Part shown: positions 36,896 to 63,262 of the stretch, piece by piece
Numbering within the stretch: the stretch's first letter is position 1
Layout: every line of letters begins with the position of its first letter
Origin: Actinophytocola xinjiangensis
GTDB lineage: Bacteria > Actinomycetota > Actinomycetes > Mycobacteriales > Pseudonocardiaceae
Assembly (NCBI RefSeq): GCF_001921215.1
Contig: NZ_MSIF01000002.1
Span: forward strand, 372,001 to 436,000
Length of the DNA: 64,000 bases
Direction: 5' to 3'
The notes under the pieces: generated by a model
What the model was told of the DNA's origin: nothing
Seen by the model: only the letters and a program-made list of their open reading frames with translations
Databases searched by the model: none
Made by a program: the position numbers and the translations under genes

Positions 36896-38047
36896 TCAGA
36901 GCGAGCGGACGAACGCGCGGATGTCCTTGACCAGCAGCTCCGGGACCTCCATGGCGGCGAAGTGGCCGCCCCGCTCGAACTCGGTCCAGTGGGTGATGGT
37001 CGGGATGTCGCGGTCGGCCAGGCGGCGCAGCGGCAGGAACAGGTCGGCCGGGAACACCGCGACGCCGACCGGGACCGACTGCGGCGGCGGCGACGCGCCG
37101 GTGACCGCGCGCTTGATGTCCTCGGCGCCGTCGTAGTAGAAGTGCGCCGAGGTGCCGCCGGTGGCGGTCAGCCAGTACAGGGTGACCAGCGCGAGGATGC
37201 GGTCGCGGTCGATGGCGTCCTCGGGGACCTTGGCCGAGGCGTCGGTCCACGCCTGGAACTTCTCCACGATCCAGGCCAGTTGGCCGACGGGGGAGTCGGT
37301 CAGGCCGTAGCCCAGCGTCTGCGGGCGGGTCAGCTGGATCTTCATGTAGCCCGAGCCGTCGGCGTCGAAGGCGCCCAGGTGCTGCAGGCGGGCGACGTCG
37401 GTCTCGGACAGGTCGACCATCTCGGCCGGGTCGCCCGACGGGAAGGTCATCAGCATGTTGATGTGGATGGCCTGGACGTGCTCGGGGTCCATCAGGCCGA
37501 GCACCTGCGAGATCACCGAGCCGGCGTCGCCGCCCTGGGCGACGTAGCGGTCGTAGCCCAGTTGGGCCATCAGCTGCGCCCAGGCGCCGGCGACCCTGGG
37601 CACGCTCCAGCCGACGCTGCCCAGCGTGGAGAAGCCGTAGCCGGGGATGGACGGGATGACCAGGTGGAACGCGTCGGCGGGGTCGCCGCCGTGCGCGGCC
37701 GGGTTGGTCAGCGGGCCGATGACGTCGGCGAACTCCAGGAACCCGCCGGGCCAGCCGTGCGAGAGCAGCAGCGGGGTGGCGTCGGGTTCGGGTGAGCGGA
37801 CGTGCAGGAAGTGGATCCGCTCGCCGTCGATCTCGGTGGTGAACTGCGGGTAGCGGTTGAACTCCTCCTCGACGGCCCGCCAGTCGAAGCTCGTGCGCCA
37901 GTACTCGGCCAGCTCCTGCAGGTAGGCGAGCGGAACACCGCGCTCCCAACCGAAACCGGACAACTCGGCCGGCCACCGGGTGTTCGCCAGCCGCTGGCGA
38001 AGATCGTCCAACTGAACCTGGGGAATGTTGATCTGGAACGGTTCCAT
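36896..38047 (-). CDS. Epoxide hydrolase of the enediyne core (SgcF/KedF/NcsF2-like)
   Basis: 383 residues from the ATG at 38047. The N-terminal EHN domain opens [20 protein letters not shown]. The alpha/beta-hydrolase core has the oxyanion [10 protein letters not shown], the nucleophile Asp in QGGDAGS, and the catalytic His in [11 protein letters not shown]. Enzymes of this type in C-1027, kedarcidin and neocarzinostatin pathways open an epoxide on the nine-membered core to a vicinal diol, the point where the beta-amino acid is later attached. It is transcribed divergently from the aminomutase gene. The assignment rests on family and context. Confidence 0.88.
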
Positions 38048-38063
38048 GGCGGTCCTTCTTTTG

Positions 38064-38130
38064 TGCCGAAAGCGACGGGTGATCAGCCGCGCAATGTGTG
38101 TGTGGATCATCTCCGGTGTCGATTTCGGCA
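38064..38130. promoter_or_regulatory. 13-bp inverted repeat in the epoxide hydrolase/aminomutase divergent promoter region
   Basis: TGCCGAAAGCGAC (38064-38076) and GTCGATTTCGGCA (38118-38130) are complementary at 12 of 13 positions, with centres 54 bases apart. They lie in the 224-base gap between two divergent enediyne genes. The spacing suits a regulator that binds both sides of a promoter or loops. No further element was identified in the gap. Confidence 0.4.
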
Positions 38131-38271
38131 TCAACTCCTGCTGTGCTTAGTGACTGCGCACGCGTAGAGAAGCCCAGGTGGGGGCGGGGAAGGCACGATC
38201 GATTCCGGTGGTGAAGCCGCCGCGAATTGATTCCCCGAATGCCACTACGGACACCTTGACGGGGTGAAGAC

Positions 38272-39873
38272 GTGACTCTGCTTGAGAACGATGCTTCCGT
38301 TGACTTCGATGGCGAAAAGCTGGATATCGACAGCATCCGACGGGTCGCCGAGGACCGGACCCCCGTGACGCTCAGCGAGTCCACCTTGGACCGCGCGACG
38401 GTGAGCAGGAAGCAGTTCGAGGACACCATCTGGCAGGGCGTCCCCGTCTACGGCGTGACGACCGGCTACGGCGAGATGATCTACATGCTCGTCGGAACGT
38501 CCAAAGAGGTCGAACTGCAGACGAACCTGGTGCGCAGCCACAGCGCCTGCGTCGGCCCGCTGTTCTCCGAGGACGAGGCCCGCGCCATCCTGGCCGCGCG
38601 GCTCAACGCGCTGTCCAAGGGCTACTCGGCCGTGCGGCCCGAGCTGCTCCAGCGCATCGCGCTCTACCTGAACCTGGGCATCACCCCGGCCATCCCGGAG
38701 ATCGGCTCGCTGGGCGCGAGCGGTGACCTCGGCCCGCTGGCGCACATCGCCTCCACGCTCATCGGCGAGGGCTACGTGCTGCGCGACGGCAAGCAGGTGC
38801 CCACCGGCCCGGTGCTCGCCGAGCACGGCATCGAGCCGCTGCAGCTGCGGTTCAAGGAAGGCCTGTCGCTGATCAACGGGACCTCCGGCATGACCGGTCT
38901 CGGCTCGCTGGTGCTGGGCCGGGCGATCAACCAGGTCCGCCAGGCGGAGATCGTCACGGCGCTGGTCGTGGAGACCATGCTCGGCTCCACCAGCCCGTTC
39001 CAGGCCGAGGGCCACGAGATCGCCCGCCCGCACAAGGGCCAGATCGACACCGCGGCCAACATGCGCGTGCTGCTCAAGGACAGCGGCCTGGCCGTCGAGC
39101 ACGCCGACCTGCGCCGCCAGGCCAAGGAGCAGCAGGACGGTGACGTCTCGCGCACCGACGTCTGGATCCAGAAGGCCTACACGCTGCGCGCCATCCCCCA
39201 GGTCGTCGGCGCGGTGCGCGACACCCTGTACCACGCGACGAACGTGGTGGAGACCGAGATCAACTCCTCGAACGACAACCCGTTGTTCTTCGAGGGCAAG
39301 GAAGTCTTCCACGGCGCGAACTTCCACGGCCAGCCGGTCGCGTTCGTGATGGACTACACCACCATCGCGCTGACCCAGCTGGGCGTGTTCTCCGAGCGGC
39401 GCACCAACCGGCTGCTCAACCGCAACCTCTCGGGCCTGCCCGAGTTCCTGGTCTCCACCGGTGAGCCCGGCCTCAACAGCGGCTTCGCCGGCGCGCAGTA
39501 CCCGGCGACCGCGCTGATCGCCGAGAACCGGACGATCGGCCCGGCCAGCACGCAGAGCGTGCCGTCCAACGGGGACAACCAGGACGTGGTCAGCATGGGC
39601 CTGATCGGCGCGCGCAACGCCCGCCGGGTGCTGGGCAACAACAACTACATCCTGGCCGTGGAGTACCTGGCCGCCGCCCAGGCCGTCGACGTCTCCGGGC
39701 GTCTGGACGGGCTCAGCCCGGCCGGCCGGGCGACCTACGACGCCATCCGGTCGCTGGTGCCCACCCTGGAGCACGACCGGTTCATGGCCGACGACCTGGA
39801 GACCATCGCCTCCGCGCTCTCGCGGGGCGTGTTCCTCGACGCCGTCCGCCAGGCCGGCATCGATCTGCGCTGA
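38272..39873 (+). CDS. MIO-dependent aminomutase (SgcC4-like tyrosine 2,3-aminomutase)
   Basis: 533 residues from a GTG. The MIO-forming triad Ala149-Ser150-Gly151 is in IGSLGASGDLGPLAHIA, and the catalytic Tyr60 lies in VYGVTTGYG. Both are offset by three residues from what I recall for SgcC4. The family includes histidine ammonia-lyases, but length, the downstream SgcC5-like gene and the enediyne context favour conversion of L-tyrosine (or a related amino acid) into the beta-amino acid. That unit would decorate the enediyne core. Substrate and stereochemistry are not proven. Confidence 0.87.
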   Translation: MTLLENDASVDFDGEKLDIDSIRRVAEDRTPVTLSESTLDRATVSRKQFEDTIWQGVPVYGVTTGYGEMIYMLVGTSKEVELQTNLVRSHSACVGPLFSEDEARAILAARLNALSKGYSAVRPELLQRIALYLNLGITPAIPEIGSLGASGDLGPLAHIASTLIGEGYVLRDGKQVPTGPVLAEHGIEPLQLRFKEGLSLINGTSGMTGLGSLVLGRAINQVRQAEIVTALVVETMLGSTSPFQAEGHEIARPHKGQIDTAANMRVLLKDSGLAVEHADLRRQAKEQQDGDVSRTDVWIQKAYTLRAIPQVVGAVRDTLYHATNVVETEINSSNDNPLFFEGKEVFHGANFHGQPVAFVMDYTTIALTQLGVFSERRTNRLLNRNLSGLPEFLVSTGEPGLNSGFAGAQYPATALIAENRTIGPASTQSVPSNGDNQDVVSMGLIGARNARRVLGNNNYILAVEYLAAAQAVDVSGRLDGLSPAGRATYDAIRSLVPTLEHDRFMADDLETIASALSRGVFLDAVRQAGIDLR

Positions 39874-39902
39874 CAAACCGCGATCCGAGAGGTACGACAA
39901 CG

Positions 39903-41249
39903 ATGAGCGACTCGGAGCGTTATCCGGTCTCCTTCGCCCAGCAGATGCTGTGCGTGTTCGACTCGGGTGACCCGAACAGCGGACCGTTCGGGCCCCACCA
40001 CAACATCACCTGGGCGTGGCGGGTCGGCGGCAGCGTCGACACCGCGATCCTGGCGGCCTCGCTGGACGAGGTCGTGGCGCGGCACGAGGTGCTGCGCACC
40101 CGGATCGTCCAGGACGGCGAGGACCTCTACCAGCAGGTCGCGCCGCCGAGCCCGGCCGAGGTGTCCGAGGTGGACCTGTCGGGGGTCGCGGACGGGGACC
40201 GGGACCGGCGCTCCGAGGAGCTGGTGATCGAGCTGGAGGGACAGCGGTTCGGCATCGAGCCGCTGCCCCTGGTCCGCGCGGTGCTCGGCCGGTTCGACGA
40301 CCAGGACTCGGTGCTGGTGCTGATCGCCCACCACGCCGCGGTCGACGGCTGGTCGATGCAGGTCATGGCCAACGACCTGGCCAGCGGCTACGCCCGGCGC
40401 ACCGGCCACGACGTCCCGGCGACCCCGGTGCCCACCCAGTACCGCGACTTCGCGGTCTGGCAGCGCACCGAGCCCGAGGAGGCCCTGCCGGCCGCGCACC
40501 TGGAGTACTGGAAGAACAAGCTGGCCGGCGCGACGATGGTCGCCACGAAGATGGACTACCCGCGTTCGGCGAACCGGCCGGTGAGCACCTCGGTGCTGCG
40601 CTACCCGGTGGCCAGCGAGATCTCCGACGCGCTGACCACGGTCGCCCGGGAGAACCGCGCGACCAAGTTCATGGTGCTGCTGGCCGCCTACAACGTGCTG
40701 GTGGCCCGGCGGACCGGGATCACCGACATCACGGTGGCCACCATCGGCTCCAACCGCAAGCAGGCCAGGTTCCAGGACACGGTCGGCAACTTCACCAACT
40801 TCATCCCGCTGCGCACCGACCTGGCCGGCTGCGAGACGTTCCAGGACGTGCTCGCCAGGACCAGGACGAGCTGCATCGAGGCGTACTCCAAGGAGATCCC
40901 GTTCCTGGTGCTGCTGAGCGTGGCACCCGAGCTGATGTCCTCGGTCGCCACCGACAACGACGCGCTGATGGCGTTCCAGCCGATGCAGCTGCCCTTCACG
41001 CTGGAGGGTGAGCGGGTCGGTGACCTGGAGCTGCGCGGGGTTCCCCGCCGGCGGTCCCAGCAGGTCGGCACGGAGATCCCCGACGGCGCGCTGTGGCAGT
41101 TGGACGTGGCGCCGACCGGCGAGATCCACGCCTACCTCGGCTACAACACGCACAAGTTCACCGAGACCACCATGCGCGTCATGGCCGACGAGTTCGACCA
41201 GGTGCTCAAGGACACGGTTCTCGACCAGCACGGACCCCTGCGGATCTGA
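39903..41249 (+). CDS. Free-standing condensation enzyme (SgcC5-like)
   Basis: 448 residues, a single NRPS condensation domain with no adenylation or carrier domain. The catalytic HHxxxDG is H143-H144-AAV-D148-G149 (AHHAAVDGWSM). The latch and floor regions follow the family (TVGNFTNFIPLRTDL). SgcC5 joins a carrier-bound beta-amino acid to a hydroxyl of the enediyne core, making an ester. The same role is likely here because the aminomutase and epoxide hydrolase are neighbours. No carrier protein for the donor is visible in the window. Confidence 0.87.
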   Translation: MSDSERYPVSFAQQMLCVFDSGDPNSGPFGPHHNITWAWRVGGSVDTAILAASLDEVVARHEVLRTRIVQDGEDLYQQVAPPSPAEVSEVDLSGVADGDRDRRSEELVIELEGQRFGIEPLPLVRAVLGRFDDQDSVLVLIAHHAAVDGWSMQVMANDLASGYARRTGHDVPATPVPTQYRDFAVWQRTEPEEALPAAHLEYWKNKLAGATMVATKMDYPRSANRPVSTSVLRYPVASEISDALTTVARENRATKFMVLLAAYNVLVARRTGITDITVATIGSNRKQARFQDTVGNFTNFIPLRTDLAGCETFQDVLARTRTSCIEAYSKEIPFLVLLSVAPELMSSVATDNDALMAFQPMQLPFTLEGERVGDLELRGVPRRRSQQVGTEIPDGALWQLDVAPTGEIHAYLGYNTHKFTETTMRVMADEFDQVLKDTVLDQHGPLRI

Positions 41250-41264
41250 AGGGCGAGGAGACCC

Positions 41265-42776
41265 ATGAGTGACACGGCAGGCGCGCCGGGGTTCGGGCCA
41301 GCCACCATCGAGGCCGGTGACTCGCGCTACGAGAGCATGCTGCGCGGGGCCAACCACCGGTTCGTCGCCAAGCCCGACCGGGTGAGCGTGGTGACCACCA
41401 CCGAGCAGGTGGTGGCCGTGGTCGGCGACGCGGTCGCCAGCGGCCTGCGGGTCACGGTGCGCAGCGGCGGGCACGGCTTCGAGGGGTTCACCGCGGCCGA
41501 CGGCGGCGTGCTGCTCGACATGTCGGAGATGACCTCGGTCTACTTCGACCAGTCGCGCGGCGCGTTCGCCATCGAGCCGGGGGCGACGCTCGGGCACGTC
41601 TACCGGGTGCTGTTCAAGGGCTGGAACGTGACGATCCCCGGCGGCGAGTGCTCCGAGGTCGGCGTCGGCGGGCACTTCGCCGGCGGCGGCTACGGACCGC
41701 TGTCCCGCCGCCTGGGCGCGGTCGTGGACTACCTGTACGCGGTGGAGGTCGTGGTCGTCGACGCGGACGGGACCGCGCGTGCCGTGGTCGCCACCCGCGA
41801 GCCCGACGACCCGCACCGCGACCTGTGGTGGGCGCACACCGGCGGTGGCGGCGGCAACTTCGGCGTGGTGACCCGGTACTGGGTGCGTTCGCCCGGTACC
41901 ACCGCCACCGATCCGGCCGAGTTGTTGCCCCGGGCGCCGAGCCGCTGGCGGATCGGGTTCTGTCTGTGGCCGTGGGAGTCGATGACCGAGGAGGGTTTCA
42001 CCACCCTGCTGCGCAACGTCGGCGACTGGTTCGAGGCCAACAGCGCGCCCGGTTCGATCCACGCCCAGCACTCCGCCTCGTTCTACGCCTCGCACCGCTC
42101 CGGCGGCGCGCTGCTGGTCCAGGCGATGGTCGACGACGACGTGCCGGGCGCGGAGGACCTGCTCAACGCCTACTTCGACGCGGTCAGCGAGGGCGTGGGC
42201 ATCGAGGGGACCAGGGTGCAGTCGGTCAAGCCGTGGCTGTACTTCGCCTCCTACCCGAACTGGGGCGACCCCGGCACGCCGGACATCCGCCGCGTCAAGA
42301 TCAAGGCCGCGTACCTGCGCAAGGGCTACACCGACCCGCAGATCGCGACCTGCTGGGAGCACCTGACCCGCGAGGACGGCGAGAAGAACCAGCTGATCCT
42401 CATCGGCTACGGCGGCCAGGTGAACACCGTCGACCCGGGCGAGACGGCCACCGCGCAGCGCGACTCGGTGCTCAAGGCGGCGTTGATGGCCGTGTGGGGC
42501 GACGAGAGCGAGGACGACGCGCACATCACCCGGCTGCGGGAGTTCTACCGCGACGTCTACGCCGAGACCGGCGGGGTGCCGGTGCCCGGTGAGCGCAGCG
42601 ACGGGTCGTACATCAACTACCCGGACGTCGACCTCGCCGACCCGGCGTGGAACACCTCCGGGGTGGCGTGGTCCACGTTGTACTACAAGGACAACTATCC
42701 CCGGCTGCGTCAGGTCAAGCTGCGCTACGACCCGCGTGACGAGTTCCGTCACGGCCTGTCGATCGAGCTGCCCTGA
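41265..42776 (+). CDS. Bicovalent-flavin oxidoreductase (berberine-bridge-enzyme-like)
   Basis: 503 residues. The FAD-binding PCMH domain carries both flavin attachment sites: His in TVRSGGHGFEGF and Cys in IPGGECSEVGVGGH. The C-terminal BBE segment ends VAWSTLYYKDNYPRLRQVKLRYDPRDEFRH. Such enzymes oxidise alcohols, sugars or C-H bonds next to aromatic rings, and many tailor natural products. It is 15 bases after the condensation gene in the same operon. Its substrate, core or beta-amino acid, is not known, and I do not recall it as a standard part of enediyne cassettes. Confidence 0.85.
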   Translation: MSDTAGAPGFGPATIEAGDSRYESMLRGANHRFVAKPDRVSVVTTTEQVVAVVGDAVASGLRVTVRSGGHGFEGFTAADGGVLLDMSEMTSVYFDQSRGAFAIEPGATLGHVYRVLFKGWNVTIPGGECSEVGVGGHFAGGGYGPLSRRLGAVVDYLYAVEVVVVDADGTARAVVATREPDDPHRDLWWAHTGGGGGNFGVVTRYWVRSPGTTATDPAELLPRAPSRWRIGFCLWPWESMTEEGFTTLLRNVGDWFEANSAPGSIHAQHSASFYASHRSGGALLVQAMVDDDVPGAEDLLNAYFDAVSEGVGIEGTRVQSVKPWLYFASYPNWGDPGTPDIRRVKIKAAYLRKGYTDPQIATCWEHLTREDGEKNQLILIGYGGQVNTVDPGETATAQRDSVLKAALMAVWGDESEDDAHITRLREFYRDVYAETGGVPVPGERSDGSYINYPDVDLADPAWNTSGVAWSTLYYKDNYPRLRQVKLRYDPRDEFRHGLSIELP

Positions 42777-42787
42777 CGGTGGTCGCG

Positions 42788-43864
42788 ATGCACCTGGCCG
42801 ACTTACCGTCGCGCTCGGCGCTGGCCGGTCGGGCCGCCGGGCTGGTGGGCGTGCTGCGCGGGCTGCCGGCGTGGTCGCCGCACCGTCGGCGGCTGTCCGA
42901 GGAGACGATCCGCGTGCTGGCCGGGGCCGGCGTGTTCCGGCTGCGGGCGCCGCGCGCGTACGGCGGGTTCGACCGGGACACCGAGACGTTGGTCGGGGTC
43001 GCGGTCGAACTGGGCCGGGCCAGCGGTCCGGCGGCGTTCCTGGCGTGTGCGACCTGGGTGCCGACCTGGCTGGCCGCCGGATCCGGTGCCCGCGCGGAGG
43101 TCTTCGCCCGGCCGGACGTGGTGGTGTGCGGCCCGGTGTCGGCGCGTTCCCGGCCGGTGCCGGGCGGCTGGGTGCTCGACGGCCGGTGGGCCTCGGTGCC
43201 CGGGGTGCTGCACGCGCGGTGGCAGGCCGTCGTGACGGTCGCCGGTGGGCGGCCGTCGGTGGCGTTGGTGCCGGTGGCCGACCTGCGGGTGGTCGACGGA
43301 GCGGACGTCACCGACCTCACCGGCGCCGGGGCGGCGGGGGTGGTCGCCGAGGCGGTGTTCGTTCCGGCGCACCGGCTGTCGCCGCTGCCGGCCGGGTCGC
43401 TGGCCGGGGTGCGGGCGGCGTCCTGGGTGGGGCTGGTCGTCGGGCTGGCCAAGGACGCGCGGGACTGGTACCTGGAGGAGCTGGTCACCGACCACGGGCC
43501 GTCGTTCGCCGGCGGTCCGGCGGTGCCGGCGCTGCTCTCGCACGTCCAGGCCGGCCACGCGTTCACCGCGCTGTCCTCGGCCGAACGCGCCGCCAACGAC
43601 CTGGCGTCCACCGTGGACTCCGGGGCGGTGCCGGCGCCCGACGCCGTCGACGAGATCTGCCGGCTCGCCGGCGACACGGTGCACCTGCTCGCCGCGATCA
43701 GCGGACCGGGCTCCTCGGTCCACCGGGTCGCGCGCGACCTGGCCGCCGTCACCGGCCACCTGCTGGCCGAGGAAGACACAGATGTCGGGGACCTGGCGGC
43801 CGGCCGGCCGTACCTGGTCGACCGTCCCGCAACACCGCCGCCGCCGCGAAAGGAAATCAGATGA
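42788..43864 (+). CDS. Acyl-CoA-dehydrogenase-like flavoprotein (possible flavin-dependent monooxygenase)
   Basis: 358 residues from the ATG at 42788. The helical N-terminus (LSEETIRVLAGAGVFRLRAPRAYGGFD) and beta-domain (GPVSARSRPVPGGWVLDGRWASVPG) match the acyl-CoA dehydrogenase superfamily, especially the class D flavin monooxygenase branch (HsaA- or DszC-like). The usual dehydrogenase catalytic Glu is not evident. It might hydroxylate the aryl group or core with reduced flavin from a separate reductase, but no reductase gene is visible. Its stop overlaps the next start (ATGA). The family call is good and the reaction is inferred. Confidence 0.7.
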   Translation: MHLADLPSRSALAGRAAGLVGVLRGLPAWSPHRRRLSEETIRVLAGAGVFRLRAPRAYGGFDRDTETLVGVAVELGRASGPAAFLACATWVPTWLAAGSGARAEVFARPDVVVCGPVSARSRPVPGGWVLDGRWASVPGVLHARWQAVVTVAGGRPSVALVPVADLRVVDGADVTDLTGAGAAGVVAEAVFVPAHRLSPLPAGSLAGVRAASWVGLVVGLAKDARDWYLEELVTDHGPSFAGGPAVPALLSHVQAGHAFTALSSAERAANDLASTVDSGAVPAPDAVDEICRLAGDTVHLLAAISGPGSSVHRVARDLAAVTGHLLAEEDTDVGDLAAGRPYLVDRPATPPPPRKEIR

Positions 43865-44301
43865 CCACCTACCCCACCGACGCGAAACCGGCCGACCAGG
43901 CCTCGGTCGCCGCCCTGACCCAGCAGATGCTGGCGTCCTGGGCCTACGCCGACGCGGACGGGTTCGCCGACCTGTTCATCGAGCAGGGCACGCTGATCCT
44001 GCCCGGCATCTACAAGCAGGGCCGTGAGGACATCCGGGTGTTCGCCAAGGACGCCTTCGAGAACCAGTACAAGGGCACCCAGGTCACCGGCAAGCCGATC
44101 AGCATGCGGTTCTTCGGCCCCGACGTCGCCCTGCTGATCACCAGCGGCGGCGTCATGGCCGCCGGCGAGACCGAGGTCTCCGACGCCCAGGCGATCCGCG
44201 CCTCGTGGTTCGTCCTGCGCGTCGAAGGCCAGTGGCGCCTGGCCGCCTACCAGAACAGCCCCGCCAAGCACCAGCTCCCCGTCCCCGGCTCCGACGACTG
44301 A
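43861..44301 (+). CDS. SgcJ/EcaC-family NTF2-like enediyne protein
   Basis: 146 residues with AAAGGAA upstream. The NTF2-like cone fold is recognisable: TQQMLASWAYADADGFADLFIEQGTLILPG near the N-terminus and WFVLRVEGQWRLAAYQNSP at the end, the pattern of SgcJ. SgcJ-type proteins are conserved in nine-membered enediyne clusters and assist early core formation, though their exact step is unsettled. It is the last gene of the aminomutase operon and is followed at once by a strong terminator. Confidence 0.86.
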   Translation: MTTYPTDAKPADQASVAALTQQMLASWAYADADGFADLFIEQGTLILPGIYKQGREDIRVFAKDAFENQYKGTQVTGKPISMRFFGPDVALLITSGGVMAAGETEVSDAQAIRASWFVLRVEGQWRLAAYQNSPAKHQLPVPGSDD

Positions 44302-47748: not shown

Positions 47749-47756
47749 ACCGGGAC

Positions 47757-48011: not shown

Positions 48012-48473
48012 TCAGGGGTTGGCGGACACCCGGCGGGCCGGTTGCTCGCTGTTGAACGGTGCCAGCGCGTCGCGCAGTTGGGCCGGGACGCGGGCGGGGA
48101 CGGTTTCGTTGTTGGGTCCCCGCATGCAGGCGATGCGTTGTCGTCCTCGGGCGACCAGGCTCTCGTGGTCGTTCCTGAGCAGGTAGTAGTCGAAGACGAA
48201 CTGGATCTGGGTCTGGGTGAGCTCGTCGAGTCTCATCCGGATGGACAGGTCGTCGAAGGCGGTGATCTCGGCGAAGAACTCGCACTCGGCCTTGAGGGTG
48301 AACAACTTCAGGTCGTCGTGCATGATCTCGGCGAGCACGTCCGGGGCCACCTCGCGCAGGAAGGTCTCTCGGCAGTGTCCCTGCCAGCGCAGGTAGTTCA
48401 CGTAGTAGACGTTGCCGACGAAGTTGGTCTCCTCGAAGCCGACGGTGTGGCGGATCTCGTAGTAGTCACTCAT
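48012..48473 (-). CDS. Enediyne hotdog thioesterase (SgcE10/CalE7-like)
   Basis: 153 residues. The sequence FEETNFVGNVYYVNYLRWQG (about residues 14-33) is the diagnostic motif of enediyne PKS-associated thioesterases. LKAECEFFAEITAFDDLSIRMRLDEL follows in the second half of the hotdog fold. These enzymes release the polyene chain from the PKS carrier domain. It starts seven bases after the PKS stop, so the two are co-transcribed, as in all known enediyne cassettes. Confidence 0.95.
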   Translation of the reverse strand: MSDYYEIRHTVGFEETNFVGNVYYVNYLRWQGHCRETFLREVAPDVLAEIMHDDLKLFTLKAECEFFAEITAFDDLSIRMRLDELTQTQIQFVFDYYLLRNDHESLVARGRQRIACMRGPNNETVPARVPAQLRDALAPFNSEQPARRVSANP

Positions 48474-55572: not shown

Positions 55573-55622
55573 CCATTTCGAGGAAACATGAAAGCCGTTT
55601 CAAAGAGCGGACGGGGATTGAG

Positions 55623-56606
55623 TTGACCATTTCCTGGCGCGCACTACGGCGCCGTATACTGACACCCGACGTCGCCGAGACGAGTCTCGCCAAGCGCGGA
55701 TTCCACAAGAAGTCGCCAGCGGCCAAGGAAAGGCTGGAGACGGTCGGAAAGACGTTCGTCGAGGGCTACGGTCAGGCGGTGGAGTCACGCGGTCCGGATG
55801 ATCTGGAGCGCCGACTCGACGAGGTCCCCGACTGGCTGCGTGGATTCGCCTACGAGGGCGCCGGAATGGGCCTGGCGATCCTCGACGGTCTGCCCTTCGG
55901 CCGCTCGGACAACGTCGCCCGCCTCCTGGCGACCCCGGTCGGCGACACCTACCGCGAGCTGATCTACGTGGGGATCGGCTGGGCCATGGCCCGCCTGCCC
56001 CGGTTCCGCTGGCCCAAGCCGGCCCGGTTGGACGACCAGGTCCTGGTACCGCTGGTGCTCGACGGCTACGGGTTCCACCAGGCCTACTTCCACACCGCGC
56101 GCTACGTCGAGGCCCAGTACCGGGACCCCGGGTTCCCCTGGCCGGGCGGGCGGCACGGGCACTTCGCCAACAACGCCATCGACCAGGGCATCGGCCGCGC
56201 GATGTGGTTCATCGCCGGCACCGACCCCGAGCGGGTCGCCGACCTGATCGACGGCTTCGCCCCCGAGCGCCGCGGCGACCTCTACGCCGGCGCCGGCCTG
56301 GCCGCGACCTACGCGGGCGGGGTCGAGGAGTCCGAGCTGCTGGCGATCCGGCGGCGGGCGGGCGAACACCGGGGCAACCTGGCGCAGGGCAGCGCGTTCG
56401 CCGCGTTCGCCAGGGTACGCGCGGGCATCGTGCCCCCCCATTCGGCACTGGCCGCCAAGCTCCTCTGTGGAACGACTCCGGAGGAACTGGCCAGGGTCAC
56501 CGGTGAGAACCGGCCGGACAACCGGGTCGAGGGCGACCAGCCGGCCTACGAGATCTGGCGGCAACGACTCGCCAACGAGTTTTCCCATGGAGGTGTCAAC
56601 ACATGA
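55623..56606 (+). CDS. DUF1702 enediyne protein (UnbL-type), second copy
   Basis: 327 residues from the TTG at 55623, chosen because LTISWRALRRRI aligns with MPSLIGSLRQYV at the first copy's start. A GTG at 55569 overlapping the previous stop is an alternative. FAYEGAGMGLAILDGL, YVGIGWAMARLPRF, DGYGFHQAYFHTARYV and DQGIGRAMWFIAGTDP match the first copy block for block. The pair therefore arose by an old duplication. As I recall, nine-membered clusters carry two such genes (E2/E3-type), which would support a nine-membered product. It overlaps the next gene by ATGA. Confidence 0.88.
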   Translation: MTISWRALRRRILTPDVAETSLAKRGFHKKSPAAKERLETVGKTFVEGYGQAVESRGPDDLERRLDEVPDWLRGFAYEGAGMGLAILDGLPFGRSDNVARLLATPVGDTYRELIYVGIGWAMARLPRFRWPKPARLDDQVLVPLVLDGYGFHQAYFHTARYVEAQYRDPGFPWPGGRHGHFANNAIDQGIGRAMWFIAGTDPERVADLIDGFAPERRGDLYAGAGLAATYAGGVEESELLAIRRRAGEHRGNLAQGSAFAAFARVRAGIVPPHSALAAKLLCGTTPEELARVTGENRPDNRVEGDQPAYEIWRQRLANEFSHGGVNT

Positions 56607-58573
56607 ACGCGGTACGTGGCTTGCTGCGCAGGCAGCTGACCGGTGTCATCGCGCTCGTGGTCGTCGTCGGTTTCTATTTCGCGGTCGCGCTGCCCGAGAC
56701 CTCGGCCGAGGAGAAGAACGACCTGGCGAGCGAGTACTCGTTCGTCGGCCACAGCGTGGCGCTGCCGGCGTCGGACAAACAGCAGTCGATCCGGGAGGTG
56801 AACCAGGCCTACAAGCACATCGACGCCTGGATCTCCTCGGTCGGCGCCTCGGTCGCGATGAACGACCTGGACGGCGACGGCCTGCCCAACGACCTGTGCC
56901 TGGTCGATCCCCGGACCGACCAGCTGATCATCACGCCGACGCCCGGCAAGAACGACCACCGGTACAAGCCCTTCGAGCTGACCCCGGACCCGCTGCCGGT
57001 CAACGACGTGATGGCGCCGATGGGCTGCGTGCCGGCCGACCTCAACGAGGACGGCCGGATGGACCTGCTGGTCTACATGTGGGGCCGTACCCCGGTCATC
57101 TACCTGGCCAGGGCCGACCACGGCACGCTGTCCCCGGCGGCCTACAAGGCGGTCGAGGCGGTGCCCGGCACGCACTCCGACGCCCAGGGTGTCTACAACG
57201 GACCGCAGTGGAACAGCAACGCGGCCACCGTCGGTGACTTCGACGGCGACGGTCACGACGACATCTTCATCGGCAACTACTTCCCGGACAGCCCCATCCT
57301 CGACGCCTCGCTCGACGGCGGCGTGACGATGAACCACTCGCTGTCCAACGCCCAGAACGGCGGCGGCGGTCACATCCTGCTGTGCGCCGGCGCCAAGGCC
57401 GGCAACGACCCGGAGGCCACCTTCAAGCTCCAGCCCAAGGAAGCCCTCCCCGAGGAGGCCCGTGGCGGCTGGGCACTGGGCGTGAGCGCCAACGACCTCG
57501 ACGGCGACCTGCTGCCCGAGCTGTACATCGCCAACGACTTCGGCCCGGACCGGTTGCTGTACAACAAGTCCACGCCCGGGGCGATCCAGTTCGAGAACGT
57601 CACCACCACCCGCACCCCCGGCACGCCGAAGTCCAAGCGGATCGGTGCCGACTCCTTCAAGGGCATGGGTGTCGACTTCGGTGACTTCAACCACGACGGC
57701 CTCTACGACGCGTTCGTGTCGAACCTGACCGTCTCGTGGGGCATCGTCGAGAGCAACTTCTTCTACACCAACGTCGCCGAGGACCAGAAGGACCTGCGCA
57801 ACCAGCTCCAGGACGGCGAGGCGCCGTTCAAGGACCAGAGCGGGGCCAACGGCACCGCGTGGTCCGGCTGGGCCTGGGACCTCAAGATCGCCGACTTCGC
57901 CAACACCGGCGAGCAGCAGATCGCCCAGACCAACGGGTTCATCCGGGGCGCCACCAACCGCTGGCCCCAGCTGCAGGAACTGGCCATGGCCAACGACGGC
58001 CTGGTCGCCAGCCCCTTCTTCTGGCCCAACGCCAACGCCGGTGACGACATCGCCGGCAGCGAGACCATGCGCTTCTACGTCAAGGGTCCCGACGGCCGCT
58101 ACACCGACCTCGCCCCCGAGCTGGGTCTGGCCGTGCCGATCCCCACGCGCGGTATCGCCACCGGTGACGCCGACGGCGACGGCCTGATCGACATGGCGGT
58201 GGCCCGCCAGTACGGCGAGCCGATCTTCTACAGCAACGAGGCGCCCGACCCGGGCGGCCACCTGAACCTGACCCTGACCCACGAGCAGGACGGGATCGTC
58301 GGCAGTGCGCCGGCCCCCGGCTCGCCGGTCACCGGCGCCCAGGTCAAGGTGACCACCTCGGACGGCAAGACCTACATCCAGCGCGTCGACGGTGGCAGCG
58401 GCCACGCCGGGCGGCGCAGCAGCGAGGTGAACATCGGCCTCGGTGACGCACAGGGACCCGTCGAGGTCATGGTGTGCTGGCGCGACCGTGACGGCCAGGT
58501 GCACGAGGAGAAGCTCAAGCTCAGCCAGGGCCGGCACTCGCTCGTGCTTGGCGACCAGGTCAGGGAGAGGTGA
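56603..58573 (+). CDS. Enediyne protein UnbV (FG-GAP repeats, ASPIC/UnbV domain)
   Basis: 656 residues. An N-terminal membrane anchor or signal (about 12-32) is followed by a beta-propeller of FG-GAP-like repeats with Ca-binding loops (MNDLDGDGLPND, ADLNEDGRMD, GDFDGDGHDD, GDFNHDGLYD, GDADGDGLID). A C-terminal ASPIC/UnbV domain ends it (GGSGHAGRRSSEVNIGLG). The protein should sit on the outer face of the membrane. UnbV is part of the universal enediyne gene set, with unknown function. It is coupled to both neighbours by 4-base overlaps. Confidence 0.92.
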   Translation: MNAVRGLLRRQLTGVIALVVVVGFYFAVALPETSAEEKNDLASEYSFVGHSVALPASDKQQSIREVNQAYKHIDAWISSVGASVAMNDLDGDGLPNDLCLVDPRTDQLIITPTPGKNDHRYKPFELTPDPLPVNDVMAPMGCVPADLNEDGRMDLLVYMWGRTPVIYLARADHGTLSPAAYKAVEAVPGTHSDAQGVYNGPQWNSNAATVGDFDGDGHDDIFIGNYFPDSPILDASLDGGVTMNHSLSNAQNGGGGHILLCAGAKAGNDPEATFKLQPKEALPEEARGGWALGVSANDLDGDLLPELYIANDFGPDRLLYNKSTPGAIQFENVTTTRTPGTPKSKRIGADSFKGMGVDFGDFNHDGLYDAFVSNLTVSWGIVESNFFYTNVAEDQKDLRNQLQDGEAPFKDQSGANGTAWSGWAWDLKIADFANTGEQQIAQTNGFIRGATNRWPQLQELAMANDGLVASPFFWPNANAGDDIAGSETMRFYVKGPDGRYTDLAPELGLAVPIPTRGIATGDADGDGLIDMAVARQYGEPIFYSNEAPDPGGHLNLTLTHEQDGIVGSAPAPGSPVTGAQVKVTTSDGKTYIQRVDGGSGHAGRRSSEVNIGLGDAQGPVEVMVCWRDRDGQVHEEKLKLSQGRHSLVLGDQVRER

Positions 58574-59622
58574 GTAGGGAAATGGTTGTCCAGGAAGCGA
58601 AGACCGGCGGTGGCAAACCGCCCGCCGGTGGGCCGCCGAAGAACCCCAAGGTGGTCAAAGCGCTACGCAGGTTCGCCATCTCGATCACCATCTTCAACAT
58701 CGTCGGGTACATCGTCCTCGGGTTCGAGCAGCCCTGGATCTGGCCTTTCGTCGCGGTGGCCACCGGCTACACCGTCGAGCTGGTCCTGGAGAAGATCGGC
58801 GCGCGGGTCGAGGGGCGCGACCCCCGCTACGCGGGCAACGGGTTCAAGGGCGTCATGGAGTTCCTGTTCCCGGCGCACATCACCAGCCTCGCGCTGAACA
58901 TGCTGATCTACGTCAACGACCGCATCTGGGTGATGATGTTCGCCGTCACCCTGGCCGTGGCCGCCAAGTGGATCCTGCGCGCCCCGGTGCGCGGCAACCT
59001 GCGCCACTACATGAACCCGTCCAACCTCGGGATCCTGATGGTGCTGATCCTGTTCCCGTGGGGCAGCATCGCACCGCCGTACCACTTCACCGAGCACGTC
59101 AACGACGTGGTGGACTGGCTCATCGTCGCGATCATCATCACGACCGGAACGATGCTCAACGCCAAGCTGACCGGCCGGATGTGGCTGATCTTCGGCTGGC
59201 TGAGCTTCTTCGTGCTCCAGGCGTTCGTCCGGGGCTGGCTGTTCGGCACGTCGATCCCGGGTGCCCTGGGCGTGATGACCGGTGTCGCGTTCATCCTGTA
59301 CACCAACTACATGGTGACCGACCCGGGAACCACCCCGTCCAAGCCGTGGGCACAGTTCCTGTTCGGCGCGGGCGTGGCGACCTTCTACGGGATCTTCATG
59401 GTCGCGCACATCGCCTACGGCCTGTTCTTCGCCACGGCGATCGTCTGTCTGATCCGCGGCATGTTCCTGTGGGGCCTGCACTTCGTCGACAAGTCCCGCG
59501 CCCAGTTCGCCGCGGAACAGCAGGCGAAGGCCGAGGCGGAGAAGGCGACACCGCCGGTCGCGGTGATCGGCGACGGTGGCTCCGAGACCGGTGGGCCGGC
59601 GGCCCGCCCGGCCGCGGCGTGA
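58570..59622 (+). CDS. Enediyne membrane protein UnbU (RnfD/NqrB-like)
   Basis: 350 residues from a GTG overlapping the UnbV stop (ATG 58582 is an alternative). About eight to ten membrane helices lie between residues 35 and 300, with the NLRHYMNPSNLGILMVLILF segment typical of RnfD/NqrB-like proteins. The C-terminal tail is Ala/Glu-rich and soluble. UnbU is universal in enediyne clusters. Its resemblance to RnfD hints at electron transfer across the membrane in core maturation, which is inference. The stop overlaps the P450 start. Confidence 0.92.
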   Translation: MSREMVVQEAKTGGGKPPAGGPPKNPKVVKALRRFAISITIFNIVGYIVLGFEQPWIWPFVAVATGYTVELVLEKIGARVEGRDPRYAGNGFKGVMEFLFPAHITSLALNMLIYVNDRIWVMMFAVTLAVAAKWILRAPVRGNLRHYMNPSNLGILMVLILFPWGSIAPPYHFTEHVNDVVDWLIVAIIITTGTMLNAKLTGRMWLIFGWLSFFVLQAFVRGWLFGTSIPGALGVMTGVAFILYTNYMVTDPGTTPSKPWAQFLFGAGVATFYGIFMVAHIAYGLFFATAIVCLIRGMFLWGLHFVDKSRAQFAAEQQAKAEAEKATPPVAVIGDGGSETGGPAARPAAA

Positions 59623-60995
59623 CCGAGACCAGCCGCAGGGTTCCCCCGGGACCGCCCGCCTGGGCGGCCCCGGGGATCCTCCGCCAGCTACGCGCGGACC
59701 GCCTCGGCCTGATGAGCGGGGCGGTCCGCGAGTACGGCGACGCGGTCCGGGTGGCGATCGGCCCGAAGAAGCTCTACATCTTCAACCACCCCGACCACGC
59801 CAAGCACGTCCTGGCGGACAACGCGGCCAACTACCACAAGGGAATCGGCTACACCGAGGCCAAGCGCGCCCTCGGCGACGGCCTGCTGACCAGTGAGGGC
59901 GCGCTGTGGAAGGAACAGCGGCGCACCGTGCAGCCGGTGTTCCAGCACAAGCGGATCGCCGCCCAGGCCGACGTGATCATCGACGAGGCCCTTGGCCTGG
60001 TCGACCGGCTGCGCGCGCACACCGGCCGGCGGGTCGACGTGCTCGACGAGGTCACCGCGCTCACCCTCGGGGTGCTCGGCGCGACCCTGCTCGACGCCGA
60101 CCTCGGCGCGTTCGAGTCGGTCGGCCACTCGTTCGAGGCCGTGCAGGACCAGGCCATGTTCGAGATGGAGACCCTCGGCATGGTCCCGCAGTGGCTGCCG
60201 CTCAAGGGCCAGCGGGCCTTCCGGGCGGCGCGCGCGGACCTGGAGCGGATCGTGGAGATCCTGGTCGCCCAGCGCCAGGCCGAGCCGATCGAGGCCGGCG
60301 ACGACGTGCTGACCCGGCTGATCGCCTCCACCGCGAAGGAGACCGACAAGCGGGTCGCCGACCGGCGGATGCGCGACGAGCTGGTGACGCTGCTGCTGGC
60401 CGGTCACGAGACCACGGCGAGCACCGTCGGCTGGACGCTGCACGCCGTCGGCCAGCACCCCGAGGTGCGCCAGCGGCTGCACGAGGAGGCGCTGGCCGTC
60501 TACGGCGACCGTCGTCCGTCCTATGAGGACCTGACGAAGCTGCGATACACGAACATGGTGCTGCAGGAGGCGATGCGCCTCTACCCTCCGGTGTGGATCC
60601 TGCCCCGGCGGGCGCAGGCCGCCGACGAGGTCGGCGGCTACCACGTGCCGGCCGGCGCCGAGGTGCTGATCTCGCCGTACACCCTGCACCGCCACCCCCG
60701 GTACTGGCCGGAGCCCGACCGGTTCGATCCGCAGCGGTTCGACCCGGACGTGCAGACCGACCGGCCGAGGTACGCGCACCTGCCCTTCGGCGCCGGCCCG
60801 AGGTTCTGTGTCGGCAACCACCTCGGGATGATGGAGGCGACGTTCATCATCTCCACGCTGATGCGCGACCTGCGGCTGGACCCGGTGCCCGGTTTCCAGG
60901 TGAAGCCGGAACCGATGATGTCGCTGCGCCTGGGCGGCGGACTACCCATGCACGTCCACGCCTGGCCGGCGGCCGCCGGCCGCTCCGCGGCCTGA
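59619..60995 (+). CDS. Cytochrome P450 of the enediyne operon (possibly SgcE7-like)
   Basis: 458 residues from the GTG overlapping the UnbU stop. The I-helix is LLLAGHETTAS, the K-helix ExxR is LQEAMRLYP, and the haem loop is PFGAGPRFCVGNH with Cys397. The short Pro-rich N-terminus suits a soluble bacterial enzyme. Being coupled directly to unbU, it most likely oxidises an early or core intermediate, and nine-membered clusters have a conserved P450 in this group. No ferredoxin or reductase gene is visible nearby. Confidence 0.9.
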   Translation: MTETSRRVPPGPPAWAAPGILRQLRADRLGLMSGAVREYGDAVRVAIGPKKLYIFNHPDHAKHVLADNAANYHKGIGYTEAKRALGDGLLTSEGALWKEQRRTVQPVFQHKRIAAQADVIIDEALGLVDRLRAHTGRRVDVLDEVTALTLGVLGATLLDADLGAFESVGHSFEAVQDQAMFEMETLGMVPQWLPLKGQRAFRAARADLERIVEILVAQRQAEPIEAGDDVLTRLIASTAKETDKRVADRRMRDELVTLLLAGHETTASTVGWTLHAVGQHPEVRQRLHEEALAVYGDRRPSYEDLTKLRYTNMVLQEAMRLYPPVWILPRRAQAADEVGGYHVPAGAEVLISPYTLHRHPRYWPEPDRFDPQRFDPDVQTDRPRYAHLPFGAGPRFCVGNHLGMMEATFIISTLMRDLRLDPVPGFQVKPEPMMSLRLGGGLPMHVHAWPAAAGRSAA

Positions 60996-61019
60996 CCAGC
61001 TCAACGTCACGGAAAGTCG

Positions 61020-62234
61020 GTGAACACCATGAGCAACCTCGCGGAAGACCTGTACGGCGAACCGGCGCGGCATCCCAAGGTGGCGGAGTTCGACACGCTG
61101 CGGGCCGCCATCGCCGACGAGCGGGTGCGCGAGCTGTTCCCCTACCGGTTCCTGGCGGCCAACGAGGCGTTCGCGCGCCTGGTCGACGCCACCGCGTACC
61201 GGATCCTCGACTCGATCGACGCGCTGCCCACGCCGACCGGGGCGAGCGTGGCGCGGGCGAAGAAGGAGCTGTCGATCCCGTGGCGCCGCACGGTCCCGCT
61301 GAAGTTCCTCTACGAGCGCCTCGCCGACTCCGGGATCTTCAGCCGGGGCGATGGCCGCTACTTCCCCGGCCCGGCGGCGGTCGAGGAGTTCGAGGCGGTC
61401 GCCGAGGAGCTGAAGGCGCGCGAGCCGGGCGCTGCGGTGGCCGTGGAGATCCTGCGCACCCTGGTCGACGAGGCCCAGACGTTCTTCAGCGGCAAGGCGA
61501 CCGGCGACGAGATCCTGTTCTCGCCGCAGAAGCTACCGCTGTGGCTGAAGTACTTCTCCAACGACAACCTGCTGTACGCGATCAACAACGCGGTCGGCGC
61601 CGAGGCACTGTCGAGGCTGGTGCCCGAGGGCGGCGGCCGGTTCGAGATCCTGGAGATCGGCGGGGGCTGTGGCAGTGCGGCCGACCAGGCGCTGCGCAAG
61701 CTGGGGCCGGCGGTGACCCGCTACCGGTTCACCGAGGTCGCCGAGACCTTCGCCCGGCACGGTGAGCGCGCGGCCACCGCGGCGGCCTCACCGTCCACAG
61801 TGGTCGAGTCGGCCAGGCTGGACATGACGACGTCGTGGGAGGCGCAGGGTGTGGAGCCCGGCACCTTCGACGCGGTGTACTCGGTCAACTGCTTCCACGT
61901 CGCGCCGGACCTCGACTTCGTGGTCAACGAGGCGGCGAAGGCGCTGCGCCCGGGCGGGGCGGTCGTGGTGTCGGAGTGCGTGCGGCCGACCAAGCTGGCG
62001 CGGCCGATCCACGCCGAGATCATCTTCGACTTCCTGGACAGCTTCACCGACGTGATGACCGACCCGGTGAAGCGCCCGACGCACGGCTTCCTGACCCCCG
62101 CCGCCTGGCGCGCCACGTTCGAGGCCACGGGCCTGGACGACGTCACCGTGCTGCCGGACGTGGACGCCATCGCCGAGCAGTACCCGGACTTCGTCGTCGG
62201 CGCGGTCGTGGCCCGAGCGAAGGAGCGTGGATGA
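61020..62234 (+). CDS. SAM-dependent methyltransferase of the enediyne operon
   Basis: 404 residues from a GTG (ATG 61029 is an alternative). A long helical N-terminal half (about 1-190) precedes a Rossmann domain with motif I FEILEIGGGCGSA (about 207-219), DAVYSVNCFHVAPDLDF at motif IV and ALRPGGAVVVSECVRP at motif V. The two-part layout resembles methyltransferases embedded in or acting with polyketide enzymes. It may methylate the core or an attached group. The target is unknown. It follows the P450 by 24 bases and overlaps the next start. Confidence 0.85.
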   Translation: MNTMSNLAEDLYGEPARHPKVAEFDTLRAAIADERVRELFPYRFLAANEAFARLVDATAYRILDSIDALPTPTGASVARAKKELSIPWRRTVPLKFLYERLADSGIFSRGDGRYFPGPAAVEEFEAVAEELKAREPGAAVAVEILRTLVDEAQTFFSGKATGDEILFSPQKLPLWLKYFSNDNLLYAINNAVGAEALSRLVPEGGGRFEILEIGGGCGSAADQALRKLGPAVTRYRFTEVAETFARHGERAATAAASPSTVVESARLDMTTSWEAQGVEPGTFDAVYSVNCFHVAPDLDFVVNEAAKALRPGGAVVVSECVRPTKLARPIHAEIIFDFLDSFTDVMTDPVKRPTHGFLTPAAWRATFEATGLDDVTVLPDVDAIAEQYPDFVVGAVVARAKERG

Positions 62235-63262
62235 TCCGCCCACTGGTCCGGTTCGCCGTACGCCGGTCGCTGACCCACGACACCCGGTACGTCGAGGTCG
62301 TCCGCCCCCGGCGGGCCCGGGGTCTGGTCGCCGAGGTCTACCGCCAGGTGGAGGACGAGTTCGGCACCCTGGCCCCGCCCACCGCGATGCACTCGGTGGC
62401 CCCGGACACGTTGGCCGCGTCCTGGATGATCCTGCGGGAGACGCTGGTCGCCAAGGGCGTGGCTCCCCGGCCGGCGAAGGAGGCGGTGGCCACCGGCGTT
62501 TCGCTGGCCAACAGCTGCCCCTACTGCGCGGATGTCCACGGGATGACGCTGGACGCCATCCCCGACGTTGGCCCGACCGACGAACTGGTGGCCTGGGCAC
62601 GGGGAAGCGCGACCGCGGCCGGTGTCGTGGCGCCGCCGTTCCCGGCCTCGCAGCTGCCGGAACTGGTCGGGGTGGCGGTGGCGTTCCAGTACTACAACCG
62701 CGTCGTCAACGTTTTCCTGAGGGACTCGCCGTTCCCGGCCCACGTCCCGGAGTCGGCGAAACCCAAGGCACGCAAGGTACTCGGCCGCGCACTGCGTCCC
62801 CCGGCCGACGGTGGTCCGCCACCGGGCGGATCGCTGGACCTGCTCCCGGCCGTCGCCCGGCCCTCGGACCTGGCCTGGGCCGGGGAGAACGAGGCGATCG
62901 CCGGCGCGTTCGGCCGCGCCTACGCGGCGGTGGACAACGCCGGCGCACGGTCGGTCCCCAGGTCGGTCCGTGAGCTGGTCGCCGATCGTCTGTCCAGTTG
63001 GGACGGTCAGGCGCCCGGGTTGAGCCGTGCCTGGGTGCAGGACGCGGTCGCCGGCCTGGCGCCGGCCGACCAGCCGGCCGGGCGGCTCGCGTTGGTGGTG
63101 GCGATGTCGTCGTACCAGGTGGACGAGGGCCTGGTCGAGGCGTTCCGGGCCACGGCCCCCGGGGACGAGGTCCTGATGGAGCTGGTGTCGTGGGCGAGCC
63201 TCGCGGCGGCCCGGCGGATCAGCTCGTGGGTGGGGGCGGCCAGTCCGGCCGCAGCGGAGTGA
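62231..63262 (+). CDS. AhpD/carboxymuconolactone-decarboxylase-like protein of the enediyne operon
   Basis: 343 residues. The AhpD signature SCPYCADVHGMTLD (about residues 96-109) gives a CxxC plus His redox site. The rest is helical and duplicated-looking, about twice the size of simple AhpD. In this place it could manage thiol or peroxide chemistry for the reactive enediyne (self-protection), or do a pathway redox step. Both are inference. It is coupled to the methyltransferase (ATGA) and is the last gene before a strong hairpin. Confidence 0.75.
   Translation: MIRPLVRFAVRRSLTHDTRYVEVVRPRRARGLVAEVYRQVEDEFGTLAPPTAMHSVAPDTLAASWMILRETLVAKGVAPRPAKEAVATGVSLANSCPYCADVHGMTLDAIPDVGPTDELVAWARGSATAAGVVAPPFPASQLPELVGVAVAFQYYNRVVNVFLRDSPFPAHVPESAKPKARKVLGRALRPPADGGPPPGGSLDLLPAVARPSDLAWAGENEAIAGAFGRAYAAVDNAGARSVPRSVRELVADRLSSWDGQAPGLSRAWVQDAVAGLAPADQPAGRLALVVAMSSYQVDEGLVEAFRATAPGDEVLMELVSWASLAAARRISSWVGAASPAAAE

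What the first reader, a model, noticed from the sequence alone, without database searches (positions are those of the whole stretch)
36896..63262. Nine-membered-type enediyne biosynthetic locus
The PksE-thioesterase pair diverges from DUF1702/UnbV/UnbU genes, which together form the universal enediyne cassette. Around it are an SgcF-like epoxide hydrolase, an SgcC4-like aminomutase, an SgcC5-like condensation enzyme and an SgcJ-like protein. This is the set linked with nine-membered cores carrying an ester-bound beta-amino acid (C-1027, kedarcidin, maduropeptin). The BBE flavoprotein, the AhpD-like protein and the operon methyltransferase are not familiar to me as a set in known clusters, so the product may be new.
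Basis: partly seen in the sequence, partly recalled or inferred. Interest (0 to 1): 0.85.

Follow-up and report, generated by a model that had tools for sequence, protein, structure and literature searches.

The report
Enediyne cluster with outsourced enzyme activator
This stretch is the first part of a bacterial gene cluster that should make a nine-membered enediyne, a DNA-cutting antibiotic; its central synthase appears to have lost its built-in activating domain, and a stripped-down second synthase farther along the cluster appears to supply that activity.

Summary
Window 36896-63262 holds a full enediyne PKS cassette plus a P450, epoxide hydrolase, tyrosine 2,3-aminomutase, free-standing condensation enzyme and SgcJ homologue. 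An E2-like gene, the published marker of nine-membered cores, is present (E2 label recalled, R3 not compared). The cluster runs on about 50 kb past the window. Actinokineospora fastidiosa carries a closely matching cluster; the papers searched showed no product. No apoprotein gene passed the cut-off in the genome (best 24.7 bits against 25, other contig).

The surprise starts from the window's PksE. Enediyne PksEs normally carry their own phosphopantetheinyl transferase (PPTase) domain. In the window's PksE and in that of A. fastidiosa this domain has lost an essential metal-binding residue. In both clusters a stripped second PksE (276 and 399 aa) keeps an intact PPTase and no working carrier site. 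In two other genomes with a PksE remnant the pattern is reversed. I propose that the PPTase acts in trans. Activity was not tested; two discrete Sfp/AcpS-family PPTases elsewhere in the genome, and four Sphaerisporangium PksEs broken without such a partner, are real counter-arguments.

The parts
36896..38047 (-). epoxide hydrolase (EHN type)
   Evidence: PF06441 1.9e-41; 59% to C-1027 WQO_RS33780, 79% to A. fastidiosa
38365..39873 (+). tyrosine 2,3-aminomutase (SgcC4 type); a longer start at 38272 is possible
   Evidence: TIGR03832 887.6 bits, cut-off 501; 75% to the C-1027 enzyme; MIO Ala-Ser-Gly and the equivalents of its Tyr63 and His93 kept
39903..41249 (+). free-standing condensation enzyme (SgcC5 type)
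   Evidence: PF00668 4.1e-62; 44% to the C-1027 condensation protein; HHAAVDG at residue 143
41265..42776 (+). BBE-type FAD protein
   Evidence: PF01565, PF08031; 86% in A. fastidiosa, no match in C-1027
42788..43864 (+). acyl-CoA-dehydrogenase-like protein
   Evidence: 36% to a C-1027 acyl-CoA dehydrogenase
43861..44301 (+). SgcJ/EcaC family protein
   Evidence: TIGR02246 118.6 bits, cut-off 33.95; 57% to the C-1027 protein
48012..48473 (-). enediyne thioesterase E10, copy 1 (copy 2 lies beyond the window, L010:7698-8162, 8 bp after the mini-PksE)
   Evidence: 73% to the C-1027 thioesterase; 4i4j 3.1e-66; copies 91% identical
48481..54303 (-). PksE: KS-AT-ACP-KR-DH with a degenerate C-terminal PPTase domain. 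Its proposed partner, the 276-aa mini-PksE, lies beyond the window end at L010:6859-7689 (+) = G000:C12:481859-482689
   Evidence: Pfam; 51% to SgcE; KS Cys, AT Ser, ACP Ser, KR Tyr, DH His motifs present; mini-PksE:
48484..49062 (-). PPTase domain of PksE; SgcE D1827-E1829-W1869-E1873-K1877 read D-A-T-A-D
   Evidence: fold still predicted, pLDDT 88.7
54547..55572 (+). DUF1702 protein, E2-like
   Evidence: PF08012 2.1e-139; 57% to one of the two C-1027 DUF1702 proteins
55569..56606 (+). DUF1702 protein, E3-like
   Evidence: PF08012 2.8e-127; 53% to the other C-1027 DUF1702 protein
56603..58573 (+). E4 / UnbV
   Evidence: PF07593; 56% to the C-1027 protein
58582..59622 (+). E5 / UnbU membrane protein
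   Evidence: 67% to the C-1027 protein; no Pfam family
59712..60995 (+). P450 of SgcE7 type
   Evidence: PF00067 1e-85; 60% to a C-1027 P450
61029..62234 (+). cassette methyltransferase
   Evidence: Methyltransf_12; found in 16 of 390 family genomes
62231..63262 (+). AhpD/CMD-like protein
   Evidence: PF02627; 49% to a C-1027 protein

Best explanation
The window opens a nine-membered-type enediyne cluster with a beta-tyrosine branch, shared in large part with Actinokineospora fastidiosa. Its PksE still has the residues to make the polyene (KS, AT, ACP, KR, DH), but its C-terminal PPTase domain is most likely a pseudo-enzyme: folded, catalytically broken. The phosphopantetheine arm on the PksE ACP is most likely added in trans by a mini-PksE about 56 kb downstream. 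The mini-PksE is the remnant of the cluster's older PksE: it sits in the old PksE slot (before TE and E6), has lost KS, AT, KR, DH and the ACP serine, and keeps an intact PPTase. Shown: the genes, the residues, the predicted fold, the order and the reciprocal pattern. Inferred: that the PksE domain is inactive, that the mini-PksE modifies the PksE ACP, and the product class.
Against: No activity is shown. Only two genomes have an intact mini-PksE, their main PksEs are sisters in the PPTase tree (SH-aLRT 92, quick tree) and share two of the losses (E1829, W1869), so part of the decay may be one event. The genome has other PPTases: three ACPS-family matches over the cut-off, one of them inside a large PKS frame; A. 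fastidiosa has one. Sfp modifies the CalE8 ACP in vitro (PMC3107222). Four Sphaerisporangium PksEs lost the same residues with no mini-PksE found in those genomes. In G063 the C-terminal part of the PksE PPTase lies in another frame and no remnant was seen; if that is real and not a sequence error, it is a further broken domain without a partner. The window PksE keeps Asp1827, so residual activity is not excluded, and its broken domain is still predicted to fold. The window PksE has a second odd domain, AT, so unusual divergence is not confined to the PPTase. Four other short-frame matches (G144, G084, G114, G183) were not looked at, and the match list was cut.
Confidence: 0.55

Rival explanations
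1. The mini-PksE is a leftover, and an ordinary Sfp-type PPTase elsewhere in the genome loads the PksE ACP.
For: The own genome has discrete ACPS-family PPTases. Four Sphaerisporangium PksEs lost the same residues without a mini-PksE, and all four genomes carry a similar Sfp-type PPTase with the same two neighbours, on the PksE contig in two. Sfp loads the CalE8 ACP in vitro (PMC3107222).
Against: The mini PPTase pair evolves like intact domains (pN/pS 0.36; 2 of 26 and 1 of 25 leave-one-out invariant columns changed in a 31-row alignment), whereas the two remnants found in genomes with an intact PksE have decayed PPTases.
Confidence: 0.25
2. The mini-PksE PPTase serves the carrier proteins of the beta-tyrosine branch (PCP at 96269-96511, C-A-PCP at 97892-100978 in extended window coordinates) and not the PksE ACP.
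For: Both carriers are in the cluster.
Against: The C-1027 plasmid has similar carriers and one PksE place only (its chromosome was not searched). The domain descends from one that acts on an enediyne ACP, and its intactness tracks the state of the PksE domain in 4 of 4 genomes examined.
Confidence: 0.09
3. Ordinary nine-membered cluster; the substitutions in the PksE PPTase domain are tolerated and it still loads itself.
For: Asp1827 is kept in the window PksE and the fold is still predicted at pLDDT 88.7.
Against: 9 of 24 columns invariant in the other 29 rows are changed in the window PksE and 13 of 24 in A. fastidiosa, which has also lost the Asp; the most changed of those 29 rows shows 4 of 28 by leave-one-out.
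Confidence: 0.11

Closest known systems
C-1027 cluster (sgc), Streptomyces globisporus plasmid SGLP1
   Same: Cassette, P450, E6, aminomutase 75%, hydroxylase 77%, condensation enzyme, PCP, epoxide hydrolase, SgcJ, an O-methyltransferase and P450 pair 66% and 56%; 29 of 62 genes from 36.8 to 112 kb have a best hit of 40% or more.
   Different: No chromoprotein over the cut-off in the genome; no glycosyltransferase among the genes scanned by Pfam; no match to the sgcD, sgcG, GMC oxidoreductase or DUF5987 proteins. SgcE keeps its PPTase residues and the plasmid has one PksE place.
Actinokineospora fastidiosa JCM 3276 cluster, NZ_BMRB01000009.1
   Same: 46 of 62 genes have a best hit of 55% or more (one-way best hits), and there is a PksE with a broken PPTase and a mini-PksE followed by TE and E6.
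   Different: Gene blocks are in another order; the mini-PksE keeps a DH remnant instead of a dead ACP.
RerA/RerB of Rhodococcus erythropolis (PMC11563203)
   Same: A polyene-making iterative PKS whose PPTase is on a separate protein that also carries a thioesterase (passages).
   Different: In the passages seen RerA is described without a PPTase domain; here the main PksE keeps a dead copy and the separate PPTase comes from a dismantled second PksE, with the thioesterase as its own gene.
Group II PPTases (PptT, Sfp)
   Different: About 16% identity; no PF01648 match was listed at its place and no Pfam family for the protein.

Membership tests
Enediyne cluster | PKS cassette E3, E4, E5, E, E10 (set as given in PMC5181780) | tested here: met
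Nine-membered enediyne cluster | E2 present | tested here: met
   both DUF1702 proteins pair off one to one with those of C-1027; rule; which C-1027 protein is E2 is recalled
Nine-membered enediyne cluster | R3 absent | not tested
   no R3 sequence was at hand
Nine-membered enediyne cluster | PksE groups with named nine-membered and away from ten-membered PksEs | not tested
   SgcE was the only named reference PksE; thioesterase closest to SgcE10, then CalE7
Beta-tyrosine-bearing C-1027 type | tyrosine 2,3-aminomutase | tested here: met
   TIGR03832 over cut-off, MIO motif
Beta-tyrosine-bearing C-1027 type | free-standing condensation enzyme, PCP and adenylation protein | tested here: met
Chromoprotein enediyne | apoprotein of the neocarzinostatin family | tested here: not met
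   PF00960 over the cut-off in 0 of 1 genome; best 24.7 bits against 25, on contig C3; best on the cluster contig 14 bits at C12:552121
PksE with integral PPTase | intact metal-binding residues in the C-terminal PPTase domain | tested here: not met
   Glu1873, Trp1869, Lys1877 equivalents lost, Asp1827 kept
PksE with integral PPTase | self-phosphopantetheinylation | not testable with these tools
   needs protein chemistry
Group II PPTase (mini-PksE) | Sfp-like fold and first and third metal residues | tested here: met
   (fold is a prediction)

The most novel reading that the evidence does not exclude
Two PksE genes in one cluster have divided one enzyme between them: one keeps chain building and a dead PPTase, the other has been cut down to the PPTase, which acts in trans. 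If so, the integral PPTase that marks enediyne synthases is dispensable in cis, and the partition is a natural case of complementary degeneration inside a megasynthase pair.
Probability: 0.55. Interest if true: 0.72.

Novelty: new variant of a known kind. Interest (0 to 1): 0.62.

Why it matters
PksE and its built-in PPTase stand at the first step of enediyne biosynthesis. A natural system in which that activity has moved to a separate small protein would show that the step works in trans, offer a clean in vitro test with small proteins, and give a search handle (a PksE with a broken PPTase) for clusters with unusual synthase organisation. The cluster itself has an unusual gene set (TrpC-like and TrpA-like pair, three FAD_binding_4/BBE proteins, no apoprotein over the cut-off), so a new product is likely.

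Tried and rejected
A sequencing error as the cause of the broken PPTase in the window PksE: thought unlikely because the sequence stays in frame and aligned on both sides and A. fastidiosa is broken too, mostly at other places (D1827 and two deleted stretches there, E1873 and K1877 here; E1829 and W1869 in both). Mini-PksEs as a general feature: among the rows listed (390 family genomes, 124 with a match, list cut) only G000 and G012 have a frame under 600 aa at 70% identity or more; in 394 class genomes 17 have a match and every match but the own mini-PksE lies in a frame of 1940 aa or more. The operon at 30203-36537 as self-resistance: its SbcC-like gene is in 5 of 5 other genus genomes searched and in none of 3 genomes of other genera, so it looks like a genus gene set and marks the left border. 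A PKS source for the odd AT domain: no other AT of the own genome matched at 1e-40. The TrpA-like protein as an indole supplier: it keeps the glutamate and has lost the aspartate of the recalled TrpA active site in both genomes (alignment), so I make no claim on its reaction. Papers: searches in the held PMC library; judged by titles and starts of abstracts, none listed is on an enediyne of Actinophytocola or Actinokineospora or on a truncated PksE. Opened: PMC5181780 (passages, one section), PMC3107222, PMC4103896 and PMC11563203 (passages). The PDB sequence search with the mini-PksE gave one match at E up to 1, the CalE8 ACP. The plain Foldseek search did not run; the VIA second look stands in for it. 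The broken domain's model was not searched against structures.

Limits: domain, tree and pN/pS figures come from my own scripts; the PPTase tree is the quick kind with 33 of 71 inner branches open; one-way best hits were used for gene sharing. Eight of 78 loci gave no PksE call of 1500 aa or more and were left out.
Full report
WHAT IS THERE. The window is G000:C12:372001-436000 of a 9.5-Mb genome. Its genus holds Actinophytocola oryzae: G042, listed as same genus, has a contig of exactly the length of NZ_SOCP01000021.1. The left border is put near 36.9 kb: the genes before it (SbcD- and SbcC-like, weakly HerA- and NurA-like) look like a genus gene set. Sgc names of C-1027 proteins are mostly recalled; the identities are computed.

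THE CLUSTER IS LARGER THAN THE WINDOW. In extended window coordinates (contig position minus 372000) C-1027-like genes go on to about 112 kb: MFS pumps, a hydroxylase (77%), an O-methyltransferase and P450 pair (66%, 56%), acyl-CoA dehydrogenase (63%), PCP (46%), a C-A-PCP protein (46%), a TIGR03084 protein (62%), a second thioesterase at 110698-111162 (68%) and E6 at 111164-111712 (50%). An AraC-type regulator lies at 142374-143000 (45% to a C-1027 regulator). A TrpC-like and a TrpA-like protein are shared with A. fastidiosa.

NINE-MEMBERED. PMC5181780 divides clusters by exclusive presence of E2 (nine) or R3 (ten). The two DUF1702 proteins pair off with the two of C-1027. R3 was not compared, and no named ten-membered PksE was available. 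Matches to the C-1027 GMC oxidoreductase and DUF5987 protein, present near PksE in relatives L027 and L061, were not found. A Neocarzinostat-family apoprotein was not found over the cut-off; the best match, 24.7 bits against 25, is on another contig.

NOT A CLUSTER WITH A PRODUCT I COULD FIND, BUT NOT UNIQUE. A. fastidiosa has best hits of 55% or more for 46 of 62 genes, A. oryzae for 19 of 62, C-1027 hits of 40% or more for 29 of 62 (one-way hits). The 61029-62234 methyltransferase occurs in 16 of 390 family genomes, own included.

THE SPLIT SYNTHASE. A search of the own genome with PksE gave, besides other PKSs, an ACP plus PPTase piece of PksE 46 kb past the window end. It is one open frame, called as 276 aa (L010:6859-7689, extended window 109859-110689), followed after 8 bp by a thioesterase and then by E6. 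The A. fastidiosa counterpart is called as 399 aa with the same followers. Aligned with full PksEs, the window copy holds an ACP in which the HLSSI motif reads HLGPI, and the PPTase; the A. fastidiosa copy holds a DH remnant without the His, and the PPTase. In CalE8 the second serine of that motif is the required one (PMC3107222). The PPTase residues equivalent to SgcE Asp1827, Trp1869, Glu1873 and Lys1877 are intact in both mini-PksEs. In the full PksE of the window they read D, T, A, D; in A. fastidiosa A, A, E, K, with two stretches deleted. That Asp1827 of SgcE was mutated in earlier work is recalled and comes from no call.

HOW UNUSUAL THAT IS. In 72 full-length PksEs, 6 have lost Asp1827 or Glu1873: the window, A. 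fastidiosa and four Sphaerisporangium. Of 50 named Pseudonocardiaceae loci plus the window, 2 are broken, the window and A. fastidiosa. Given KR and DH divergence, the PPTase domains of these two are the worst outliers (z -3.5 and -3.4, next -1.3; curve fitted without the six). With other reference domains and all rows in the fit they are again the two lowest (-2.7, -2.4, next -0.9). Between the two genomes the main KS, ACP, KR and DH are 80-88% identical and the PPTase 57% with 33 gap columns; the linker plus AT is also low (54%), through the window's odd AT. The mini PPTases are 74% identical. pN/pS is 0.36 for the mini pair and 0.75 for the main pair; intact pairs gave 0.32, 0.34 and 0.52, pairs of one broken and one intact domain 0.59 and 0.64, KS 0.37 and KR 0.47.

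NATURAL CONTROLS. Two further genomes have a PksE remnant. In G154 a 313-aa remnant lies just upstream of a full PksE; in G006 a 1503-aa remnant without the ACP site lies at 6.1 Mb and a full PksE at 0.43 Mb. In both the full PksE is intact at the PPTase residues and the remnant PPTase has lost the Asp. So 4 of 4 remnant-bearing genomes examined keep exactly one intact PPTase of PksE type. Four other short-frame matches were not examined. G063 has a frame break inside the PPTase and no remnant seen, G239 a frame break on a 5.2-kb contig; sequence errors are possible in both.

ORIGIN. Three relatives (L060, L064, L038, all named Actinophytocola) have PksE-TE-E6, followed in L064 and L038 by homologues of 111724 and 112804 (one extra gene between them in L064) and in L060 by 112804 only; the window genome has mini-PksE-TE-E6-111724-112804. 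The mini-PksE PPTases group together (94) and with these three relatives (81), the two main ones with each other (92), SH-aLRT in a quick tree. The mini-PksE is therefore best read as the older PksE of the lineage, stripped after a second cassette arrived; this is inference.

AGAINST. Four Sphaerisporangium PksEs are broken without a mini-PksE; their genomes share a similar Sfp-type PPTase, on the PksE contig in two of four. The own genome has discrete PPTases. G063 may be a further broken domain without a partner. Nothing here measures activity.

VERDICT. A real nine-membered-type enediyne cluster, probably new as to product, ordinary in kind; its synthase organisation is a new variant worth testing.

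Noticed in passing
window 51544-52503 (AT domain of PksE): The AT domain is about 52% identical to the nearest other PksE AT, while KS, ACP, KR and DH are 80-88% to the nearest; it is the lowest AT outlier (z -3.7). It looks exchanged or fast-evolving; no source found.
   Followed up: partly
window 48012-48473 and L010:7698-8162: The two thioesterases of the own genome are 91% identical as proteins against 74-79% across genomes, and 59 of 60 bases agree in two middle blocks, which suggests gene conversion.
   Followed up: partly
extended window 102083-103557 (C12:474083-475557): A TrpC-like and a TrpA-like gene side by side, shared with A. fastidiosa; the TrpA-like protein has lost the aspartate of the recalled active site in both. 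A possible indole-related moiety.
   Followed up: partly
L040, L041, L062, L083 (Sphaerisporangium): All four PksEs have a broken PPTase and no mini-PksE was found in their genomes; all four genomes share an Sfp-type PPTase in a conserved three-gene block.
   Followed up: partly
L147 (G063:C1:3160001-3180000): The C-terminal part of the PksE PPTase domain lies in another reading frame than the rest; a sequence error is possible. Left as it is.
   Followed up: no
L180 and L178: PksE remnants in G006 (1503 aa, ACP site missing) and G154 (313 aa) with decayed PPTases.
   Followed up: yes
window 30203-36537: SbcD-like and SbcC-like genes flanked by weakly HerA-like and NurA-like ones, a genus-wide set next to a cluster for a DNA-cutting compound.
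   Followed up: partly
L009:897-1442: An Imm21 immunity protein gene inside the cluster (PF15589 1e-54); no partner was looked for.
   Followed up: no
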